Part shown: piece by piece, positions 17,700-48,829 of the stretch | How positions within the stretch are numbered: the first letter of the stretch is position 1 | How the letters are laid out: each line of letters begins with the position of its first letter | NCBI RefSeq assembly: GCF_030867095.1 | Contig: NC_081828.1 | Coordinates: 206,545,978 to 206,609,977 of the forward strand | DNA length: 64,000 nt | Direction of reading: 5' to 3' | Source of the DNA: Alligator mississippiensis | Taxonomy: Eukaryota > Chordata > Crocodylia > Alligatoridae | Program-made: the position numbers and the translations under genes | Notes under the pieces: generated by a model | Told to the model about the DNA's origin: nothing | Database searches by the model: none | Seen by the model: only the letters and a program-made list of their open reading frames with translations

Positions 17700-19512
17700 G
17701 GTAGAGGGATTATAAACGCTTTGAGAAAAGGTGGAGATGGGGACTACCTTGGTGGTTGGGGGCAAATGAGAACAAAGCGACAGGGGTAGCAATAGTATTC
17801 AAGAACCCAGAGTAAAGCAGGTAAAAGAAGTCAAAGAAGAGGTAGAACGAATGATATTATCACTCAGGGGAACAGAATTAGAAATTTTCAATGTATATGC
17901 ACCACCAGAGAGGGAGGGAAGGAACGTACTACTTAGCTAGCAGTTTATGTGATTGGAGGGAGACCAGTTTATGTGGCTGGAGGCAGTCTCTGGTTGTGGG
18001 TGGTGTGTGCTGCTGCCATGTATGCCACCCTGCTTCTTTTTGGCATGTTTTTTTTTGTCCCCAGGATCTACTGGTACACTCCTTAAAAAAGATTGAAAAC
18101 CCCTGGTATAGGGAAACAGTGAGTCAAGTCCAAATGAACGGGCATCTAAGCAGAGCCTTTAAAATCCATACAGGAGTGAGACACAGGTGCCCCCTGCTAC
18201 CACTACCATTTGTATGTGGCATGGAACTGTGAGCACAAAGAATAAAAAAACCAAGGTTATAAGCAGAGTAAAGATACTGAGAAGGGCTGCAGTAAAATGA
18301 TGATATGGATGATATAAATGTAGTAGTTAGAGATGGACTTTCAATGGAAAGGGTGCTAAAGCATACATCAGAGTATGGAGAAGCAACAGAGGCTAAACTA
18401 AATGATCAAAAATCACCATAATGGGAGTGGGGAACTGGAGGGACTTGGAGGAGTTGGGCCTTCAAATAAGAAAGAGAGAAATCAGAGTGCTAGGGATCCC
18501 AAAGGATGTCAAAGGGAAAGGCAATGCATCATGGGAAAAAGGTGATGGCAAAGCTATAGCAAATACTTTGGTTATGGTCTGGAAGGACACTGAGCTTTGC
18601 TGGAAGAGAGGAAGCAGTTAAGGTTGTGCTACTGCCAATTATTCTTTATATAGGCATTGTGTTCTCACCAATGTGGCAGAAGATAGCAGAGGTATAGAGG
18701 GAAATATGTGTGTTCTTCTGGAATGCAAAAAGAGAAAGCTTGGTTAGATCTGAACTGTACGAAGTGGGAGTGGTGGGCTGTTTGTCTCTGTGAACTGCAT
18801 TAGCATGATATGCAAGGTTGTAATGGAAGGGAGAAGGAAAAGCAGCGTGTATTACCCAATTTCACAGTGCTGCAATTCTGAGGAAATGGGGAGTATATCA
18901 GAATTCTTTAAAGAGTTCATGGGCGTGGCAACCACCCGTCATTACATCAGGAAAGAAGGATTCATCCAGAGGTATAAAATAGGGAAGGTAGGGCTGGAGG
19001 TCCTGAAGACTCATAAGAAATTGATGAAAGAGATAAGAGAGAGAGACAGGATGGCGCCAGTAAGAAACTTCACAGAAGGACAAGTAAAAGCGGTGGCAGG
19101 TAAACAACAAAAATAGGAACATACTGACCTAGCATGGATGGTTGTAAGACATATCTTGCTGGTGAGTGAGGTGCAACAAAGATGGGGCTTGACAAGCCCA
19201 TTAAGGTGCCCAAGGGAGAGGTGTGGGGAAGAAGAAACTGTGGGACATGTTTTTTGGGAGTGTACACATGCAAAAGGGGGTATAGGAAAAGGACACTTTC
19301 TGAGTGCACCAAAATAAACCTGGCATTAGCGCAGGAGATGGTACTATGTGGACTTATACCAAAGAGAACAGAGGAAATGTTATTAAGAACTTGATTAGCA
19401 TGTGTTAAAACTAATTTATGAAAAATTAGAAACATCTGGGCATTTAAGAGGTTGGCTTTCACTAAAAGAGAGTTCCTGAAGTTGGAACTACATGAACTGA
19501 AATACTACATTG
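17700..19512 (+). mobile_element. Tx1/L1-like LINE, internally deleted
   Basis: Plus-strand fragments appear in the order expected of ORF2. The endonuclease part (about 17,760-17,915) has TGVAIVFKNPE and ILSLRGTELEIFNVYAPP. After a non-matching 170 bp comes the reverse transcriptase (about 18,110-18,230) with MNGHLSRAFKIHTGVR and CPLLPLPF (canonical GxRQGCPLSPLLF). The catalytic box region near 18,300 is damaged, with DDxNVVVRDG following. Next are LGLQIRKREIRVLGIP (from 18,421), LPIILYIGIVFSPMWQ (about 18,640) and, near 19,130-19,270, AWMVVRHILL then EETVGHVFWECTHAK, the C-terminal domain of L1-type elements. Frameshifts and stops occur throughout. The YAPP, VLGIP and HVFWEC phrases favour the Tx1 branch over mammalian L1. 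It is split by the hAT element at 19,513. Confidence 0.75.
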
Positions 19513-19742
19513 TAGGACTGTGCAAAGCTTCAGTTCCTGATTCGATTCAGTGGAGATTTAGCCCAGTTCAGTGGCTGAATCTCTGAATCAAAACAGAGGA
19601 CCCTTTAACCTCTCTGAATCAAATCAGAATCCTCCGAACCGATTTGGAGAGATTTGGAAAGATTCAGAGATTCAGATATAGGCACAGCTTTAAATGTTTT
19701 TTCTACATACCTCTAGGTAGCAGGTGGATTTAGCTCATAGGT

Positions 19743-19827
19743 GGCTCTGTGGTGCAATGGATAGCATGTTGGACTTCTAGAAAGTGAAGGGATTCAAAGG
19801 TTCTGGGTTCAAGTCCCAGCAGAGTCA
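19743..19827 (+). tRNA. tRNA-Arg(TCT)-like head with intron (SINE part)
   Basis: All tRNA arms fold: acceptor GGCTCTG with CAGAGTC, D stem GTGC with GCAT, anticodon stem TTGGA with TTCAA, and T stem CTGGG with CCCAG. The anticodon loop CTTCTA is followed by an insertion of about a dozen bases before ATTCAAAG, the normal place and length of the tRNA-Arg(TCT) intron. The A box is TGGTGCAATGG and the B box GGTTCAAGTCC (normally GGTTCGAGTCC). Changes from the functional gene are mostly CpG-type transitions. Because a CR1-like tail follows directly, I treat it as a retroposed SINE head, not a working tRNA gene. Confidence 0.6.
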
Positions 19828-19944
19828 TGCTTTTCTCTTGCTGGGATCACTTGATCCCAGCTGACTTCCTACCTATGGTATGGGCGTTGGACCCGATGAT
19901 CTCATGAGGTTCCTTCCAGCCCCTAATGTCTGTGAAATCTATGG
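19743..19944 (+). mobile_element. tRNA-Arg-derived SINE with CR1-type tail
   Basis: The first 85 bp are an intron-containing tRNA-Arg(TCT) sequence, listed separately. The remaining 117 bp match, nearly end to end, the last about 105 bp of the CR1 at 26,256-28,661 read in its sense direction. Shared blocks are CTTGCTGGGAT, ACTTCCT, TTGGAC.CGATGATC (CTGGACTCGATGATC in CR1), CCTTCCAGCCC and AATGTCT.TGAAATC. This is the classic SINE design in which a pol III head borrows the 3-prime tail of a partner LINE to be copied by its reverse transcriptase. CR1-driven copies usually lack target duplications, and none is seen. A TTTT at 19,832-19,835 just after the tRNA would stop pol III in this copy. Confidence 0.75.
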
Positions 19945-20280
19945 ATGCTGGGGCTCATGGAGTGAAGCACTTCTGGTCCACTTCCAGGTTCACCGCCAAG
20001 CACGTGGAGGGCCCCCCCGCACTCCTGTGGGATGCTCTATATGCCCCAGCATCACAGCATTCACAAGCTGCGCTGGTACTTCGAGGTATGTAGAAAAAAC
20101 ATTTAAATCTGTGTCTATGTCCGAATTGCTGATTCTCCAAATCACCATTGAATCTACAGATTCAGATTTGGCCGAATCGAATCAGGGGCAGTGGTCCGAA
20201 TCCACGAATCTAATCACTGTCCCTGATTTGGGCTAAATCCGAATCAAATAGGGCCCGCTTCGCACACCCCTACTACATTG

Positions 20281-26255: not shown

Positions 26256-28661
26256 GATTTCATAGACATTTGGGCTGGAAGGGACCCCAGAGGATCATCG
26301 AGTCCAGCCCCTGCCCCAGGGGCAGGAAGTAAGCAGGGATCATAGAATCCCAGCAAGATAAGCATCCAAATGTGTCTTGAAGGCGTTCAGAGTAGGTGCT
26401 TGAACCACCTCTGGCGGCAGTCTGTTCCAAACCTTGGGGGCTTAGACAGTAAAGAAGTTCTTTCTTATGTTCAGCCTGAAGCAGTTGTGGCGGAGTTTGT
26501 GACTGTTTGATCTTGTCATCCCTTGGGGCGCTCTGGTGAACAGACATTCTCCCAAATCCTGATGGACACCCCTGATAAACTTACAGGTGGCCATCAGATC
26601 ACCCCTGAGCCTGCGCTTTTCCAGGCTGAAGAGTGCCATGGCTCTTAGCCTCTCATCATAAGGTCTGTTTTCCTGACCTCTGATCATGTGCATGGCTCTC
26701 CTCTGCACTCTCTCAAGCTTCTCCACATCCTTTTTGAATTGTGCAGCCCAAAACTGGATGCAGCACTCCAGCTGCGGCCTCACCAAAGCTGAGTACAGGG
26801 GGAAAATGACATCCTGGGATTTGCTTGAGAAGCATCTATGGATGCAAGCCAGCATTTTGCTCACTTTACTAGCTGCAGCATCACACTGATGGCTCATGTT
26901 CATCTTGTGGTCAATCATAACCCCCAAGTCCCTTTCATCTGTAGTGCTAACCAGAGTAGCACTGCTGAACCTATAAGGATGCTGCAGGTTTTTCCTCCCA
27001 AGGTGGAGAACCTTGCATTTTTCAGTGTTAAACACCATCAGGTTCTCATCCGCCCATTTCGTGAGCCTGTCAAGATCCGCCTGGATCACCCTCCTGTCCT
27101 CAGGTGTAGATGCTTTACCCCAGAGTTTGGTGTCATCGGCAAACTTGGCCAGTCCGCATCTGACTCCAATGCCTACATCATTGATGAAGATGTTGAACAA
27201 TACAGGTCCAAGGACAGAGCCCTGGGGGACCCCACTGGTCACAGGACACTATGACGATTGACTTCCATCAACCACCACCCTCTGGGCCCGACCATGGACC
27301 CAGTTCCCCAAACAGTGGATCATGGTGAGGCTGATGCTGCAGTTAGCCAGTTTTGCCAAGAAGTGATCATGGGATACCAGATCAAAGGCTTTTTTGAAGT
27401 CAAGATATACGTCAATCTCTCCCCCCTTGTCCAGGTGATAGGTCACCTGGTCATAAAAGGAAATGAGATTGGTCAAGCAAGACCTACCTGCAACAAACCC
27501 ATGCTGGGTATCCCTCAGGAGATTGTCTTCAGTTAGTCTGTTAAGAATGGCCTCTTTGATAATCTTTTCCACAACCTTCCCCACAATCGAGGTCAGGCTG
27601 ATGGGCCTGTAGTTTGCCGGATGTACTTTCCTCCCTTTCTTGAAGATAAGCATGACATTGTCCCTCTTCCAATCTTCAGGCACTTCACCAGAGCACCAGG
27701 AGCTCTCAAAGATCCATGCCATGGGCTGAGCTACAATGCTTGCCAGCTCCTTGAGTACCCTTGGGTATAAACCATCAGGGCCAGATGACTTGAAGGTATC
27801 CAGCCTGTCAAGGTGTTCGTTCATGAGGTCAGCTTCGATGGAGGGCAAGGAATCTCCCTCACCTGGGCCTCCCTGACCCACAGTGGGCAGGGGCATCCCA
27901 TGGGACTGGTGAAAAACTGACACAAAGTACCCATTTAGCAAGTTCACGTTTTCCTGGGCATCGGTTGTCAGTTGCCCCATCTGGTTTAGCAGGGGTCCAA
28001 TGTTGCCCTTGCTTTTCCTCTGGCTCCCCACACATCTAAAAAAGGACTTTTTATTGTCCTTGATATTTGTAGCTAGCCGGAGTTCCATCGCAGCCTTGGC
28101 TTTCCTGGCTTGCTGTCTGCAGGTCCGGACCAGAGCAGAGTATTCCTCCTTGGTGGTGGTTCCAGTCCTCCATCCTTTGTAGGTCTGCCTTTTAAGACGC
28201 AGGAGGTCCGCTAGTTCCCTGGAGAGCCAAGGGATCTGCTGTGCCCTTTTGCTGCCTTTCCTCCGAGACGGGATGGACTTTGCTTCTACATCCAGGAGCA
28301 ACCACTCGTCCTGAACTCCCCTCTGCTTTGGGTTGTGGCCCTTTAAGGCCGCTCTGACAAGCCTCCTTAGCTTTTCAAAGTCAGCTTTCCTGAAGTTGAG
28401 GACTTCTGTATTACTGACTGACTTGCCAGCTTTATGGCAGATGGTGAAGGTGATCAGCTCATGGTCACTGTCACCCAGCTTCCCTTTGATCGTTAGGTCA
28501 CTGATTAGGTCATCCCCAGTTGCCAGTACGAGGTCAAGCAGCACTTTACCTCTCGTCAGCCCGTAGACTTCCTGAGTCAGATAGAAGTCATCCACGCATG
28601 AGAGAAAGCTTTGTGACTGCTTGGATTTGGCCAAGCGCTCCTCCCACGAGATGTAATTCAA
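26256..28661 (-). mobile_element. CR1 LINE, 5-prime truncated, fairly young
   Basis: The element is antisense, with its 3-prime end at about 26,256 and its 5-prime truncation in the endonuclease domain near 28,655. It keeps the endonuclease C-terminus, the whole reverse transcriptase, the C-terminal region and an 84-bp 3-prime UTR (26,256-26,339). It borders an AC microsatellite and an unclassified element about 90 bp further on. Only two stop codons interrupt some 2.3 kb of coding sequence, so it is much younger than the CR1/L3-like copies at 11.2, 31.5 and 55.1 kb. Its tail is the match for the SINE at 19,743-19,944. Confidence 0.95.
26340..28661 (-). pseudogene. CR1 ORF2 (endonuclease end, reverse transcriptase)
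   Basis: From the truncated start the order is: SWEERLAKSKQSQSFL and DSDHELITF (endonuclease C-terminus), SGPDGLYPRVLKEL, NYRPISLTSIVGK, TQHGFVAGRSC, then YLDFKKAFD (RT motif A, aspartate kept), TSGVPQGSVLGPVLFNIFIN, and FADDTKLWG (catalytic FADD kept). After that come LGRK, LGVMID, YSALVRPQLE and LERVQRRAMHMIRG. A TAG at 27,249-27,251 stands where CR1 normally has the Trp of the WRPVTSGVPQG phrase, and a TAA at 26,442-26,444 follows NFFTV. Beyond it APKVWNRLPPEVVQAP continues in frame to the natural TGA at 26,340-26,342. No frameshift is evident. It cannot work, being truncated and twice stopped. Confidence 0.92.
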
Positions 28662-32159: not shown

Positions 32160-33017
32160 TAGGCCTGTGCGAAGTGGCTAGTATTCGCTTCGGATTCAGA
32201 TTCAGCAGATTCAGGGGACAGTGATTTGATCTGATGATTTGAATCGCTGTCACAATTTGATTTGCCCAAATCTGATTCAGAGATTGGGCTGCTGCCAAAT
32301 CAGCCAAGTCTCCAAATCACACAGGCCCCGTCCCCCTCCCGCTCTCCCAGCCCCGTCCGCCCCCGCTCCCAGGTCTTTGAAAAGAAAAAAGCCCAAGTCA
32401 CCGGCTGCCGCCAGGTGGCAGGACAATCCCTGATGCCCCCCGCTGCATGGGGGGCTCTGCCACGAGCCCCCAGAAGCCCCAAGGCCACTGCAGGAGCCAG
32501 TGAGTGTATTTTTTTTTCCTTAAAGGGCTGGGAGCTGGGGCAGACGGGGCAGCCATGGGGGGGCCTGCGGGAGCGGGTGGAGGTTGGGGGGCTTGTGGCA
32601 GAGCCCCCTACACAGCAGGGGGCAGCGGGATTGCCCCCCCCCAACCTGGGAGCACCCAGTGACTAGGGTTTTTTGTTTAAAGAGTCAGGAGCTGGGGCGG
32701 GTGGAGCAGCCATGGAGGGGCTGGGGGAGCAGGCAGGGGATGAGGCCTCACAAGGGCCCCCTCGTGGCCCCCCCCTCTCCACCCCTGCCCTCTACTTACC
32801 AGCTTGGAGTCCAGGTCCAGCTCCCTGCTGCAGTGGGCGGGGACTGTTCAAATCACCGAAGCGCTCCGAATCTTTTCCGAATCAATTCAGAGAGCTTCAA
32901 ATCAATTCGGACCTTTTAATTGGTCCCCTGATTCGATTCAGATTCAGAGATTCGGCCACCAAATCAGGCCAAATCTCCTCTGAATCGAATCAGCACCCAA
33001 AGCTTCGCACAGCCCTA
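32160..33017. mobile_element. hAT-like element, 858 bp, GC-rich triplicated core
   Basis: Terminal inverted repeats TAGGCCTGTGCGAAG and TAGGGCTGTGCGAAG match at 14 of 15 positions. The flanking 8-mers CTAAAAAC (32,152-32,159) and CTGAAAAC (33,018-33,025) match at 7 of 8, fitting a hAT target duplication with one later change. The AT-rich arms are dense in GATTCAGATTCAG and GAATCAATTCAG words. The core (about 32,330-32,830) is GC-rich and carries a 160-bp unit in three copies. No transposase is present. It is the same family as 19,513-20,272. Confidence 0.85.
32350..32815. repeat. Three copies of a 160-bp unit, one inverted
   Basis: Two direct copies start at about 32,498 (CAGTGAGTG then poly-T) and 32,657 (CAGTGACTAGGGTTTTTTG). 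Both continue AAAG..GGAGCTGGGGC and GGAGCAGCCATGG-like phrases. A third lies upstream in reverse complement (about 32,350-32,420), recognisable by GGTGACTTGGG and TTTTTTCTTTTCAAAGAC on the minus strand. Confidence 0.7.
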
Positions 33018-43680: not shown

Positions 43681-45700
43681 CATTTATTAATTCATATTCA
43701 GAGGAAATGTAAACCTGAAGCAAAAGAAAAGCTATTCAGGAATAGTTTACAAAAATAGCTGTTCTTGAGTAATCCCACAGATAGGCCAGCCTGATGTACT
43801 TGGGGTCCTGAACACTTAACATACTTAGTCCTGTCTCGATATGCAAAAGGTTTGTTTCTCAGTAGAGTTAGTTTAATGCGACTGAAAAGCTTTCATTAAA
43901 TGCTCATTAAGACGCAGATTAAGTTGCCTGAAGATGTGTTAGTTGGGCTATTCTCCCTGCTAAGCTTTACTTTTTATTAGACTGGCACCTGTAAAAGACG
44001 GAGGCTGTTGTCTACACTGGGATTTTTAAATTTGTTAACACCTAGCACGCTTTAAATCCTGACCAGGGGAAGGTCTTTATGACAATTTCTGGGGTGCGGA
44101 TACATACCCAAATGAGCCAAAATGAAACCTACATAATTCATTAGATATATGTTAGTGAACAATCATTGCCTTGATTTGGATTTGAACCAGTGTAACAAAA
44201 AAGAAGGTATCTATATCTCATTAACAGCTCCTTGAGTCATTGTAGTCCTCATTATTTTTGTTACCCAGGATTGTTTTTAGAGGTATAATGATACAACGGT
44301 ATTTACACACCAGTTCTCATTTTCCTTTAATGGTTTCCATAACAAGATCATTTTCCCTAACTGGCTGATTTAAGACAGCATCCCATCTTCAAGCTCACTC
44401 TTGTTTTGGCAGCTCATTGTATATGAGTCTATCACTTTGTCACAGAGCACATCAAGATGAGTTTAGATGTTTTTAAGTAAAAAATTGCAAAATATGCCTT
44501 GTTCAGATTGTCACACCAGGGTCTGTTACAGGCTGAAACCAACTGTGCAAGCACTAGAAACATTGCTGGAAGTTGGAGTTTATATCTTCAATTTGCAGTT
44601 GTAAGGGAGTCCTGCCTTGAAGGGCAAAAAGGAGTGTGTTTTTTTTTTCAGTGTTCTCAGCTCAGTCACATTAGCTGAACAGGAATTAAGTATGCCCAAC
44701 CCTTGGTTACATCCAGCCTAAACTAAACCTGCTACAAAAGGTTTGTTCTGACATGGAGACGACCCATATTAGGCCAAACAGACGAATAACAGACAAATAG
44801 ACAAATGATATTAGCTAGATTAGGCTAAATCTGCCTTTGGAAAGTTTTGCTGGTAGAGCTATAATGATACACAGTACCTGCAAAATACTCCTAGGGCGGA
44901 CACAGCTTATCACTGGAAAAACCGTGCCCTGGTTGGTATAGCTGAGTCCAGCCTCCCCTCCCGCCAGTCCTGCAGCGGCACTGGCCAAAGCATGTTTTGT
45001 GCCGGCACAACTGCCACAACGTATCTTTTACCAGCATTAGACCCGAGACCGCGTTGTCCTCCTCATACCCCTAACAGTCATGCCAGGAAAAAACTTCAGT
45101 GTGGACCTGGCCTTTTGAGAAAGTGATAGTGGAAACAAGACACTGTAATTTTTCCTTCGATGCAACTAGTGGGGGTAAAACCTTGGTGGCACTTGTCCCG
45201 TTCACCTAGCCCACATTAAAAACTACCTGTGCCTTGTCCTCACCGGGATTTTACGTGGAGATAACCACAGCAGTGTTTTGGGGGGGGACGACACTGTTTT
45301 TGTTGTGATGGAGACATAACCCGTAACTCAAGCATCTAAAAACTGAACTACAGGTGTTAAATTATATCAGTGCTGATATTGAGTGAATAACCACTTAATG
45401 ACATGAAAAGTAGGTAAGTCAGTCAAGCTAATGTCATCGAAAAAAATAAAATAAAACTTTTTTCCTAGCATGGGCAAGACCTAACCACTCAAGTTACCTT
45501 GTTTGAAGCCGAATTAGCCGACTGGCCGGGAGCTGATGGGAGAGGCTAAGAATACAAAGGTTTAACTGGAGAGACTGCTTTTCAATCAATTTGGGTTTAG
45601 ATTAGTATCCAGGAGAGGGCCAAAGAACGCCCACTTTTTTCCCCCTCTATCCTCTTGGCCAGACCCGGCCCTAAAGCGGTACATTTAAAAAAAATGAGAA
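43681..45700. other. Upstream flank of KMT2C promoter
   Basis: No gene is seen. The stretch 44,170-44,460 (ATTAACAGCTCC, GGTTTCCATAACAAG and similar) has no repeat hallmarks and could be conserved non-coding DNA. Near 44,930-45,115, GTGCCGGCACAAC and CAGTGTGGACCTGGCC suggest a decayed MITE. Confidence 0.4.
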
Positions 45701-45956
45701 CAAAACACCTCTCTGCAAAAGTCAGGCCCTCGATGGTAATGTTCCGCGGGTCTCCCGGGTCCGGGCATCGGCTGGGGCTTTCAGTGGCTCCCCCGGAGAG
45801 GCCGGGCAAAGCCCTTGGGCAGCTTGAGAGGGAGCGGGGGAAGCCGGGGTTGGTCGCCTCTCTGCTCCGGCAGCTCGCGTCCCCACCCCCGGCAGCGTCA
45901 CGTCGGGACGCGGGGCTGGCTGCACTGTGGCGGGGAAGGGGGAGCCGGGCCGGGGC

Positions 45957-45984
45957 GGCGAGGCGAGGCGAGGCGAGGCGAGGC
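45957..45984. repeat. (AGGCG)n pentanucleotide run
   Basis: Four perfect AGGCG units (45,961-45,980) with partial units on each side lie in the promoter island. Confidence 0.95.
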
Positions 45985-46148
45985 CTGGATGCGGTGGCGC
46001 CGACGGCAGGCATCGCCGCGGCGGCCCCACGCGCGCCCCGGGAGGCCGGCGGGTGCCGCGTGCGCCCCGTCGGGGCTGTCAAAACTTCCTCCCCGCCCTG
46101 CCCGGCTCCTCCCCGGCCCGGGGGCTCCGCCAGGGGGCAGGGCGCGGG

Positions 46149-46187
46149 ATGAAGCGGCCGCCGCAGCCGGGCAGCGCCGCAGCCTGA
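46149..46187 (+). other. Upstream ORF 1 (12 codons)
   Basis: ATG at 46,149 is followed by MKRPPQPGSAAA and TGA at 46,185-46,187. It matters only if transcription starts upstream of it. Confidence 0.4.
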
Positions 46188-46230
46188 GTCCGTGCGGGGC
46201 TGTGCCGGGTGCGGTGCGGGGCGCCCGGCG

Positions 46231-46386
46231 ATGCTCGGCGGAGGAGGAGGCGGCGGCGGAGGCGGAGGTGAAGCGCAGAGGCGCTGCGGGAGCAGGAGGA
46301 GCGTCGGGATCCGCGCTGCTGCCGCCGCCGCCGCCGCCGCCAGCCTGGTCGTCCCCCGCGCCCGCCCGCCCCGCGCGTCCCGCTGA
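46231..46386 (+). other. Upstream ORF 2 (51 codons) ending 8 nt before KMT2C
   Basis: ATG at 46,231 opens a frame of a Gly run, an Arg-rich middle and an Ala run, ending in TGA at 46,384-46,386. Only 8 nt separate it from the KMT2C ATG, so translation of this frame could limit or feed reinitiation at the main start. The peptide is a product of GGC/GCC triplet repeats and need not have its own function. Confidence 0.45.
46321..46341. repeat. (GCC)7 triplet run in the 5-prime UTR
   Basis: Seven perfect GCC units lie about 55 nt upstream of the start codon. Further GGC/GGA triplets lie at 46,238-46,268, and GCC/GCG runs continue into the coding exon. Confidence 0.9.
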
Positions 46387-46394
46387 CGGGCGGC

Positions 46395-46588
46395 ATGGCC
46401 GAGCCGCGCGCCCTCGCCGCCGCCGCCGCCGCCGCGCCGCCCCCGCCGCCAGAGCCCTCGCCCGAGCCCTCGCCGCCGCCGCCCGAGCCCGGAGCTCCCC
46501 CCGCCGCCGCCGCGGCAGCCGCAGACAAAAGACCTCGGGGCCGGCCTCGCAAAGATGGCGCTTCCCCTTTCCAGAGAGCCAGAAAGAA
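46395..46588 (+). CDS. KMT2C: KMT2C (MLL3) exon 1, N-terminus with first AT-hook
   Basis: KMT2C is the large nuclear methyltransferase that monomethylates histone H3 lysine 4 at enhancers within the COMPASS-like complex; its SET and PHD domains lie in later exons outside this window. This exon encodes 64 codons plus two bases. Residues 44-64, DKRPRGRPRKDGASPFQRAR and K, match the vertebrate KMT2C N-terminus as I know it. RPRGRPRK is the first AT-hook (core PRGRP, residues 47-51), a minor-groove DNA binder. Residues 1-43 are Ala/Pro/Glu low complexity and differ from the human MSSEEDKSVEQ start, although EPGAP is shared. The ATG has G at -3 and +4. The exon stops after two bases of the final Lys codon, the same phase as in human. 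Confidence 0.95.
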
Positions 46589-46594
46589 GTAAGT
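46589..46594 (+). other. KMT2C: Splice donor of KMT2C exon 1
   Basis: GTAAGT follows AAAGAA, a near-consensus donor. If not spliced, the frame meets TAA at once, since the G completes a Lys codon and TAA follows. Confidence 0.93.
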
Positions 46595-48829
46595 TGCGCG
46601 CCGCGGCCCCCGCGCCCCGCCGGGCCCCGCTCCCTCCCCGCCGCGCTTCGGGGGCGGTCGCCCGCCCGCCCCCGCTCCCCGCCCCCGCCAGCCGCGCGGC
46701 GCGGGGCAGCGCCGGGCCCCGCTCCTGCCCGGGGGTGACGACAGGGACACGTCACAGCTGGGTATGACGTCGCGCGGAGCAGGAAGCGGGGCAGAGTCGG
46801 TGTCGGGGGGGCACTTGACTCGGCCCCTCGCAGGTCTGGGGCCACAGACTGCGCGGGGAGCAAGGGAGCGGTGGGGGGGGGGTGTCCCATGCCATCCAGT
46901 AGCAGGAGGGAATATTTCTTCCCTCATCTTTCCAGGGTGTGGGGTTGAGTCCTCCCGAGTCGATAAGTCCAGGCAGAAGTCTTTTGAGTTTTGCACCGGT
47001 CCCTGGAGAACCGTTTGGGGTTTGGGGGCTCGCGTCTTGGCGTAGCTTTTCGTCCCTTTTCAGTCTCTGCTTTGTCAAAGCGACGCTAATTTCCCCATAG
47101 CGAGAATTTCACGGAGGTGCCCTGTTGTTGCTCCCGCCGTCCGGCACCGACCCACTCGTGTGCCTCACGCTTGGGTGTGAACCTTGCAGTTTCGTGTAGA
47201 CGTGTAAATTCCCAGTGTCGTACGCAGGACGCGTGAGGTGACTTGGTTGATAAAACTGAAAAATAGTTTGAGGTGAAACTCTGAATGCTGCACGCTTGGT
47301 CTGAACGCTGCACACGCTGTGCCTACCGCTACAGGCTATAAACACGTGAAATAACTCATTTTAAGAACAGCGTTATTTGGGGACATAGTTTGTTCTTCTA
47401 CGCCAGACTGAGATTGTTTCCACGCTTCATGAAAGCGGAGCCTCAGTGTAATTTCTTTTTCACTTAAATTTCTGCTCTTAGAGAGAGGCTTTCAAATCGG
47501 GCTGGGGTAATTTAGACTTGTTCTTCCAAAAATGACTACCTTTAACATGAGCATTAATGTAGAGCACGGCTGTGCCAGTGCCTGAGAGCTGGAAGCAAAA
47601 TGAGCAAAAAAACAAAAGTGAAAGCTGAACTTAATTGGCCTCATAATTCTCAAGTAGTGTATGAATGAAATGCAAAAACAAACGGTGTTTTGTTTTTCCC
47701 TATATCCATCCTTCTCTGTGGTTTGATCCTGCAGGATTGCGGCCTCAGATATAACCCCGCAAGTAACCACCTTTTCTAAAAATAGGATTTTGTTGTTGGT
47801 CATCATGATCCCCTGTGTATAACTGAGTAGATGACTGTTGGGCTCTTCTAAGCACCTGTGTTTCTGGGAGGAAAGATGTCTCTTTCTGAAGTAGCTTAGT
47901 TTTAGTGTTTCAACCTGCGCAGTATCGTTTAACGTTAAGATCAGCCCGGTGCAAGCAAAACAAAAAAATGAGTGAAAATGAAGTTTCTGCCGGCTTTTGT
48001 CCAAGTGTGTAGATCCTCTTCTCTCTCAGGCTTCCTAGTTGGATTAATATGCCTCATATAAACTAGATAAAAGAGCATATGTTCAAGCATTTTCTGTACC
48101 ATAACCACATGTCTAAATGACTATCAGCCAATCGGATCGTTCACCCGCTTTATCCCATTATAGAAAATGTTCCAGGGACGGTTTAGTCGGATGCATAAGT
48201 GTATGATATTAAAAAAGCATAGCCGAACTAAACACATTTCTGAGTTAAGGGTGACAGCCTTGGAGATTGGTATTTGAAAACCAGTGTAGCTTAGTATAGT
48301 TCACCTCCTCACAGACCATATCTTTAAATGGATTATTAAGATAGTCTTCTGTTTGCCTGTAAAATTTCCCTCTGCGAGGTGCTCATAACCCTCAACTTGT
48401 CCTGAAACCTCACAAAAGTAGGCCCTTTTTTTTTTTTTAAAGGACTACAGACATTGCCAAGCTGGCAGACACCTATTTAATTCCGTCTAGCCTGGCATCA
48501 TGCCCCTGGCAGCAGCAGTACCTGATTCTTCCCAGAAAGGCCGTGTATCCCCATAATGCACTGAGACAGTCGAACAGTTTCTGTGCAAGGAACACGGGAG
48601 GTTGCCTGTATGTGGTGAAGAGAGAATCAGCTTACACCGTGCTACAGGCAAGAGTCAGTGGTGCCAGTGCCCGGAGAATGGCTGTCTGTAGAGCAGTAAT
48701 CCAGGCCACCCTTTTTTTGGTTATAGCATCAGAGGCAATGGCAGAAGTAGCCCTGTTGCCCTGTCAGTGCTGTTGATTCAGGACTATGTCGGGTGAATAG
48801 ATGATGATGATTTGTATTACAGTTGTGTC
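46595..48829 (+). other. KMT2C: KMT2C intron 1, first part
   Basis: The GC-rich island shoulder runs to about 46,800, then ordinary intron sequence. Two CRE-like words, CGTCA (46,750-46,754) and TGACGTCG (46,765-46,772), lie 160-180 bp after the donor and may belong to the promoter. No exon 2 was recognised here or later in the window. Confidence 0.6.

What the first reader, a model, noticed from the sequence alone, without database searches (positions are those of the whole stretch)
19743..19944. A SINE with an intron-bearing tRNA-Arg(TCT) head and a tail copied from the CR1 in the same window
The head folds as a complete tRNA-Arg(TCT) and even keeps the short intron after the anticodon, so the founding transcript was an unspliced pre-tRNA. 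The tail matches the last about 105 bp of the CR1 at 26,256-28,661 block for block. The classic reptile SINE I know with a CR1-like tail uses a tRNA-Lys head; an Arg head with intron would be a distinct family.
Basis: partly seen in the sequence, partly recalled or inferred. Interest (0 to 1): 0.78.

Follow-up and report, generated by a model that had tools for sequence, protein, structure and literature searches.

The report
tRNA-CR1 chimera riding a hAT transposon
The supposed SINE is an unspliced tRNA-Arg copy fused to the end of a CR1 element, but it spread as cargo inside a small DNA transposon rather than as a SINE, and it belongs to a recurrent class of tRNA-capped CR1 fragments that look like frozen first steps of SINE birth.

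Summary
The anatomy is confirmed: 19743-19827 is a tRNA-Arg(TCT) copy with a 12-nt intron fused to a CR1 3' end. The SINE-family reading fails.

The genome (2.35 Gb, probably Alligator mississippiensis) gave 20 copies. Their flanks are homologous too, out to the ends of a non-autonomous hAT-type transposon (window 19513-20272; inverted termini; 8-bp target duplications 19505-19512 and 20273-20280). Of the 40 best places for that transposon without the insert, 39 run uninterrupted through the insertion point; 12 of 12 fetched are empty there. So the insert is cargo. Twelve of 20 loaded copies lie within 2.02 Mb, suggesting local hopping.

The head matches the primary transcript (4-nt leader, intron, trailer) of a tRNA-Arg gene on the same chromosome. 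The closest CR1 tails (93-96%) are another subfamily; the window CR1 is 79%.

At least 12 distinct tRNA-Arg/CR1 junctions exist, and tRNA-Lys and tRNA-Cys copies run into CR1 too: within 300 bp, 21 of 32 loci in sense, 1 of 32 in antisense. Inference: CR1 reverse transcriptase repeatedly jumps to fresh pre-tRNAs; the retained TTTT may stop such chimeras from becoming SINEs.

The parts
19505..19512 (.). 5' target-site duplication CTACATTG of the hAT-type transposon
   Evidence: identical to 20273-20280
19513..20272 (+). 760-bp non-autonomous hAT-type transposon carrying the chimera; termini TAGGACTGTGCAAAGC / GCTTCGCACACCCCTA
   Evidence: termini and target duplications in 20 copies; empty relatives
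19513..19730 (+). left arm of the transposon
   Evidence: homologous in the copies; present without cargo in 12 of 12 fetched empty copies
19731..19738 (+). 8-nt filler between transposon and pre-tRNA leader
   Evidence: absent in the empty copies L059-L070
19739..19742 (+). pre-tRNA leader AGGT
   Evidence: same four bases before the tRNA in gene L033, L030 and L041
19743..19779 (+). tRNA-Arg(TCT) 5' half; anticodon 19776-19778
   Evidence: Rfam RF00005 55.4 bits for 19743-19827
19780..19791 (+). 12-nt tRNA intron
   Evidence: aligned with the intron of gene L033
19792..19827 (+). tRNA-Arg 3' half
19828..19834 (+). pre-tRNA trailer ending in TTTT, the Pol III terminator, at the junction
   Evidence: aligned with trailer of L033
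19835..19943 (+). CR1 3' end
   Evidence: consensus tail 93-96% to CR1 copies L026-L028
19944..20272 (+). right arm of the transposon, partly an inverted repeat of the left arm
20273..20280 (.). 3' target-site duplication CTACATTG
26256..28661 (-). 5'-truncated CR1 in the window, a relative of the tail but not its donor
   Evidence: RVT_1 in two frames; 79.4% to the tail consensus
32160..33017 (-). related hAT-type element without the cargo; target duplication gttttcag/gtttttag
   Evidence: matches both ends of the composite consensus, 81% and 74%

Best explanation
Origin (inferred): a CR1 reverse transcriptase copying a CR1 RNA from its 3' end left that RNA after about 110 nt and went on at the oligo-U 3' end of a fresh, unprocessed Pol III transcript of a tRNA-Arg(TCT) gene, copying trailer, intron, tRNA and 4-nt leader. 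The chimera went, without a visible target duplication, into one copy of an abundant non-autonomous hAT-type transposon. Spread (shown): the loaded transposon was then moved as a DNA transposon, giving the 20 copies found, nearly all with 8-bp target duplications of their own; 12 lie within 2 Mb, which suggests local hopping (inferred). The chimera is cargo, and nothing found indicates that it retroposed by itself. A likely reason (inferred, untested): switching at the U-run leaves TTTT between head and tail, so a Pol III transcript ends before the CR1 tail that retroposition needs. The same kind of event appears to have happened many times in this genome, with tRNA-Arg, tRNA-Lys and tRNA-Cys.
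For: Both transposon ends found in 19 of 20 copies (18 by script, L018 by eye; L012 lacks the right end). Target duplications 8/8 in 10 of 20, 7/8 in 6, weaker in 3, not determinable in 1. No homology within 100 bp of the element ends among the outer flanks. Cargo and carrier diverge alike: 5.8, 7.8, 6.8 and 5.0% at non-CpG-type sites for left arm, head, tail, right arm. Without cargo: 39 of 40 scored places run through the join, 12 of 12 fetched of these 39 are empty. Head: majority of 19 copies equals gene L033 at 87 of 98 columns, 8 CpG decays, 3 other. Recurrence: 9 of 16 other tRNA-Arg loci have CR1 in sense within 30 bp, 0 of 16 in each other configuration; with four more loci and the L036 duplicate 12 of 21 within 60 bp, 0 of 21 in each other configuration. 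Lys and Cys: within 300 bp 21 of 32 in sense, 1 of 32 in antisense.
Against: The template switch itself is not observed. No target duplication surrounds the chimera in the hAT element, and none was evident by eye around nine single chimeras. Six tRNA-Arg loci (L029, L032, L038, L042, L043, L046) could not be classed as chimeras, and half of the Lys loci show no CR1 within 300 bp. Three of the 12 loci need care: L055 (the hit at 55 bp may be a further CR1), L058 (tRNA interrupted, end read by eye) and L036b (inverted duplicate of L036). Counts rest on capped candidate lists. That TTTT blocks retroposition is untested.
Confidence: 0.85

Rival explanations
1. A true tRNA-Arg SINE family mobilised by CR1.
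For: Pol III-type head, LINE tail and about 20 copies sharing one junction.
Against: All 20 copies found lie inside the same hAT-type element. Two other tRNA-Arg/CR1 chimeras used as queries found no dispersed family with their junction: L041 1 of 40 scored full length; L037 only itself full length, plus the L036 pair at 80-81% over positions 1-160.
Confidence: 0.03
2. CR1 elements insert preferentially just downstream of tRNA genes or tRNA pseudogenes, at the T-run, so head and tail arrived separately.
For: A T-run target could also give a fixed orientation and distance; no target duplications prove joint arrival of the single chimeras.
Against: No second copy of the T-run or trailer after the CR1 3' ends at the nine loci shown. 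The L033-type copies share leader to trailer with the gene but no longer homology upstream (L041 has two further matching bases), so they are copies of RNA, not of genes. In 12 of 12 fetched empty hAT copies head and tail are absent together.
Confidence: 0.1
3. The copies on C5 are segmental duplications rather than transpositions.
For: 12 of 20 copies lie within 2.02 Mb.
Against: Each determinable copy has its own 8-bp flanking repeat and no adjacent outer homology was found; 20 non-adjacent hits between outer flanks are ordinary shared repeats.
Confidence: 0.02

Closest known systems
TguSINE1 and PittSINE of passerine birds (PMC5729268, passages read)
   Same: tRNA head directly fused to a CR1 3' tail; template switching proposed for the birth of PittSINE
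   Different: heads are tRNA-Ile and tRNA-Asp; they are amplified SINE families; the present unit is carried by a DNA transposon and its head keeps intron, leader and trailer
Tortoise Pol III/SINE, tRNA-Lys with PsCR1 tail (Table 1 rows of PMC3747384 as shown)
   Same: tRNA head, CR1 tail, reptile
   Different: tRNA-Lys, amplified family; no Arg/CR1 pair in the bird and reptile rows shown
MER6/MER6A, a Mariner MITE carrying a V-SINE piece (PMC6887750, passages read)
   Same: a SINE-like piece inserted in a non-autonomous DNA transposon and amplified with it
   Different: Tc1/Mariner with TA duplications, V-SINE, mammals; here a hAT-type carrier and a single tRNA/CR1 chimera
L1 chimeras with tRNA and other small RNAs (PMC13174262, abstract, outline and passages)
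   Same: LINE joined at its 5' side to a Pol III RNA
   Different: 21 human tRNA/L1 chimeras, mostly tRNA halves in antisense; here full-length pre-tRNAs in sense on CR1
U6/L1 chimeras and pre-tRNA retropseudogenes (PMC4476161, passages read)
   Same: LINE template switching to small nuclear RNAs; unspliced pre-tRNA as template
   Different: mammalian L1; for CR1 that paper reports one uncertain turkey U6 copy beside a CR1-like element

Membership tests
tRNA-derived, LINE-tailed SINE family | tRNA-related head with Pol III boxes | tested here: met
   RF00005 55.4 bits
tRNA-derived, LINE-tailed SINE family | 3' tail from a partner LINE | tested here: met
   CR1 tail, 93-96% to L026-L028
tRNA-derived, LINE-tailed SINE family | dispersed copies whose homology ends at the SINE's own ends, with their own target duplications | tested here: not met
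   homology runs to the hAT ends; target duplications flank the hAT element
tRNA-derived, LINE-tailed SINE family | full-length Pol III transcript reaching the tail | not testable with these tools
   TTTT at 19831-19834 makes it doubtful; no RNA data
hAT superfamily, non-autonomous | 8-bp target-site duplication | tested here: met
   8/8 in 10 of 20, 7/8 in 6 of 20
hAT superfamily, non-autonomous | short terminal inverted repeats | tested here: met
   TAGGGNTGTGCGAAGC-type ends at both sides in 19 of 20 (L018 by eye)
hAT superfamily, non-autonomous | relationship to an autonomous hAT transposase element | not tested
   no search for the autonomous partner was made; the superfamily rests on termini and duplication length, which are recalled criteria
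LINE template-switch chimera | two RNA-derived parts joined in one insertion at an otherwise empty site | tested here: met
   12 of 12 fetched empty hAT copies lack both parts; for single chimeras no empty site was available
LINE template-switch chimera | target-site duplication around the joint unit | tested here: not met
   none around the chimera in the hAT element and none evident by eye at nine loci

The most novel reading that the evidence does not exclude
In this crocodilian genome CR1 reverse transcriptase routinely ends 5'-truncated copies by jumping onto fresh pre-tRNAs (Arg, Lys, Cys and probably others, sometimes two in a row), leaving a genome-wide stock of pre-tRNA-capped CR1s, that is proto-SINEs in sense orientation from transcript start to U-run. 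Most are dead on arrival as SINEs because the switch point carries the Pol III terminator into the junction; loss of that TTTT would be the missing step in SINE birth, and a dead proto-SINE can still spread by riding a DNA transposon.
Probability: 0.55. Interest if true: 0.76.

Novelty: new variant of a known kind. Interest (0 to 1): 0.62.

Why it matters
Template switching from a LINE to a tRNA has long been proposed as the way SINEs are born, but it is usually inferred from finished families. This genome appears to hold many separate, unamplified events with intact transcript ends, so the birth step, the choice of tRNA and the reason most fail could be counted. It also shows how the usual test for a SINE (many copies with one junction) can be passed when a DNA transposon carries the unit.

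Tried and rejected
Rejected: SINE family (all 20 copies found sit inside one hAT-type element); segmental duplication (own target duplications, no adjacent outer homology); the window CR1 as donor (79% against 93-96%); Arg specificity of the chimeras (Lys and Cys do the same).

Led nowhere or incomplete: the tree of the 20 copies is nearly a star. Target duplications around single chimeras were sought by eye only. L029, L032, L038, L042, L043 and L046 could not be classed as chimeras; L042 has CR1 ORF2 starting 257 bp downstream and may be one. CR1 also lies in other positions near some loci, but farther off: L029 307 bp, L032 298 bp, L036 270 bp and L044 680 bp upstream, L030 451 bp downstream in antisense. 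Lys: 40 places scored, 26 in one tandem array left out, the 14 others analysed. Cys: 40 scored, 18 analysed, 22 left out (9 in a cluster at C4:166.0-166.2 Mb, 11 at C2:135.6 Mb, and C2:164916187 and C4:164763418). A pattern search for functional tRNA-Arg genes did not complete. Kojima 2015 on snRNA-headed SINEs was not held.

Full report
WHAT IS THERE. The head is a tRNA: Rfam RF00005 at 19743-19827, 55.4 bits; ARAGORN sees it but misnames it because of the intron. The tail aligns to the 3' end of the window's CR1 over 107 bp at 76.6%; the unit has no second copy in the 64-kb window. The host is probably Alligator mississippiensis: named hits of the window CR1 protein include that species on a contig of 486,595,084 bases, and G000:C1 has 486,593,759. 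That is an inference.

COPIES IN THE GENOME. G000 has 2.346 Gb; the window lies at C5:206,545,978-206,609,977. The 202-bp query had 3,721 first-look candidates, of which 40 were scored: 18 match head and tail, 22 only the tail at 89-93%. A head-only search had 35 candidates, all scored: 18 belong to the composite described below, 17 are other tRNA-Arg loci. A second head query (L034) had 28 candidates, all scored, and added 4 loci. In all 20 composite copies (18 plus L039 and L040) and 21 other tRNA-Arg loci; these are lower bounds.

THE CARRIER. In the 20 copies the flanks are homologous too (both cut in display): 177-256 bp upstream, and downstream 300-386 bp in 17 copies with a measured right end and 112 bp in the internally deleted L039; L018 was read by eye and L012 has lost the right end. 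The ends are inverted repeats (TAGGGNTGTGCGAAGC ... GCTTCGCACACCCCTA). Target duplications are exact 8/8 in 10 of 20 copies including the window's, 7/8 in 6 (L018 by eye), weaker in 3 (L019, L022, L025), not determinable in 1 (L012). No homology within 100 bp of the element ends was found among outer flanks; 20 hits farther out are shared repeats. Such ends and 8-bp duplications are hallmarks of hAT elements (recalled). The two arms are partly inverted repeats of each other. Divergence from the consensus at non-CpG-type sites is 5.8% (left), 7.8% (head), 6.8% (tail) and 5.0% (right): the pieces moved together.

EMPTY PARENTS. The arms joined without the cargo had 12,224 first-look candidates; of the 40 places scored, 39 run uninterrupted through the join and the other is the source copy L023. 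The 39 are on 13 chromosomes. The search favours uninterrupted copies, so it gives no ratio of empty to loaded. The 12 I fetched of 39 all lack the cargo at the same point and have hAT-type ends. The site reads GGCAGCTC|GTGAATGCTGC; in loaded copies an 8-nt filler and the chimera stand there, with no target duplication. A related element without the cargo lies in the window at 32160-33017.

LOCAL SPREAD. 12 of the 20 loaded copies lie in C5:204.549-206.566 Mb (2.02 Mb of 2,346 Mb); 4 more are on C5 at 31.7-53.0 Mb and one each on C3, C4, C6 and C12. None of the 39 empty places is in the 2-Mb stretch. An internal deletion of about 59 bp is present in 13 copies, including all 11 informative copies of the 2-Mb cluster, and absent in 6, including all 4 of C5:31.7-53.0 (L012, L015 and L021 by eye, L039 uninformative). 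The tree is unresolved. Local hopping is inferred; scoring favours copies like the query, which may exaggerate it.

WHERE THE HEAD CAME FROM. L033 (C5:33,869,959-33,870,050) looks like a tRNA-Arg(TCT) gene, with the same intron and a long T-run. From leader -4 to trailer +9 the majority of 19 copies equals L033 at 87 of 98 columns; 8 differences are CpG decay and 3 other, two of them explicable as CpG decay in the trailer and one at the junction. Leader AGGT is shared by L033, the composite, L030 and L041; farther upstream there is no shared homology (L041 matches two more bases). So the template looks like the primary transcript with leader, intron and trailer. A second functional-looking gene with another intron is L056.

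THE CR1 PARTNER. The consensus tail is 96.3, 93.0 and 93.5% to L026, L028 and L027 and 79.4% to the window CR1; L026 and L027 continue upstream into CR1 coding sequence, L028 matches the CR1 3' region. These three are 3 of the 22 tail-only places.

A RECURRENT CLASS. Of 16 other tRNA-Arg loci, 9 have CR1 in sense within 30 bp downstream and 0 of 16 in each of the other three configurations; CR1 at 270-680 bp in other configurations occurs at five loci. With L036b and the four new loci, 12 of 21 have CR1 in sense within 60 bp, against 0 of 21 in each other configuration. L055 counts there through a CR1 at 55 bp that may be a further insertion, though by eye its junction is that of L036; L058 has an interrupted tRNA read by eye. 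Counting L036, its inverted duplicate and L055 as one, and adding L044 (CR1 protein at 14 bp), there are 11 distinct junctions, 12 with the composite. They begin at different CR1 points, from ORF2 residue 10 (L044) to the last 56 bp (L036). Eight run to the CR1 3' end and L058 does so. As a control for Arg I searched tRNA-Lys (82 candidates, 40 scored) and tRNA-Cys (48, 40 scored) and analysed 14 and 18 loci. CR1 lies in sense within 300 bp in 7 of 14 and 14 of 18 (within 30 bp 4 and 9, including two pairs of loci with the same flanks, L096/L097 and L117/L118); in antisense 1 of 14 and 0 of 18. So it is not Arg-specific.

MECHANISM. Shown: carriage by the transposon, RNA-type boundaries of the head, joint absence of head and tail in empty copies, recurrent sense junctions. 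Inferred: CR1 reverse transcriptase switched from CR1 RNA to the oligo-U end of a pre-tRNA. Inferred and untested: TTTT at the junction stops Pol III before the tail. Four or more Ts stand at the junction in the composite consensus, L030, L031, L035, L041, L044, L057 and L058, but not in L034, L037, L036 or L055 (read). L036 and L055 share one junction with different flanks, a possible first retroposition of a chimera.

LITERATURE (what I saw). PMC5729268 passages; PMC3747384 passages with table rows; PMC6887750 passages; PMC13174262 abstract, outline and passages; PMC4476161 passages; PMC4316615, PMC5753468, PMC7718744, PMC9223172 and PMC4640811 passages only. In ten searches of the open-access library (some listings capped) I saw no description of a tRNA-Arg/CR1 family or of tRNA-capped CR1s. 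Repbase and Dfam were not available, so a catalogue entry may exist.

Noticed in passing
L035:1110-1185 + (G000:C1, about 7.951 Mb): Match to RF00622, the 'mammalian' CPEB3 ribozyme, 56.2 bits (gathering 35), with the full model aligned, in a genome that is probably an alligator's.
   Followed up: partly
G000:C1:418.786-418.828 Mb; one unit in L104: Tandem array with a tRNA-Lys(TTT)-like copy about every 1.28-1.29 kb; 26 of the 40 scored places lie in it.
   Followed up: no
L123, L119, L121: A tRNA-Cys copy followed by a second tRNA-like sequence (Arg(CCG)-like in L123, Ser-like in L119 and L121; names recalled) and then CR1, as if two template switches had followed each other; L119 and L121 share the arrangement.
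   Followed up: partly
L036 (G000:C1:158.425-158.427 Mb): Two tRNA-Arg/CR1 chimeras about 0.7 kb apart in opposite orientation with similar flanks, an inverted duplication.
   Followed up: partly
window 45500-47100: GC-rich stretch with long overlapping frames on both strands and GC-rich tandem repeats, perhaps a CpG island; gene not identified.
   Followed up: no
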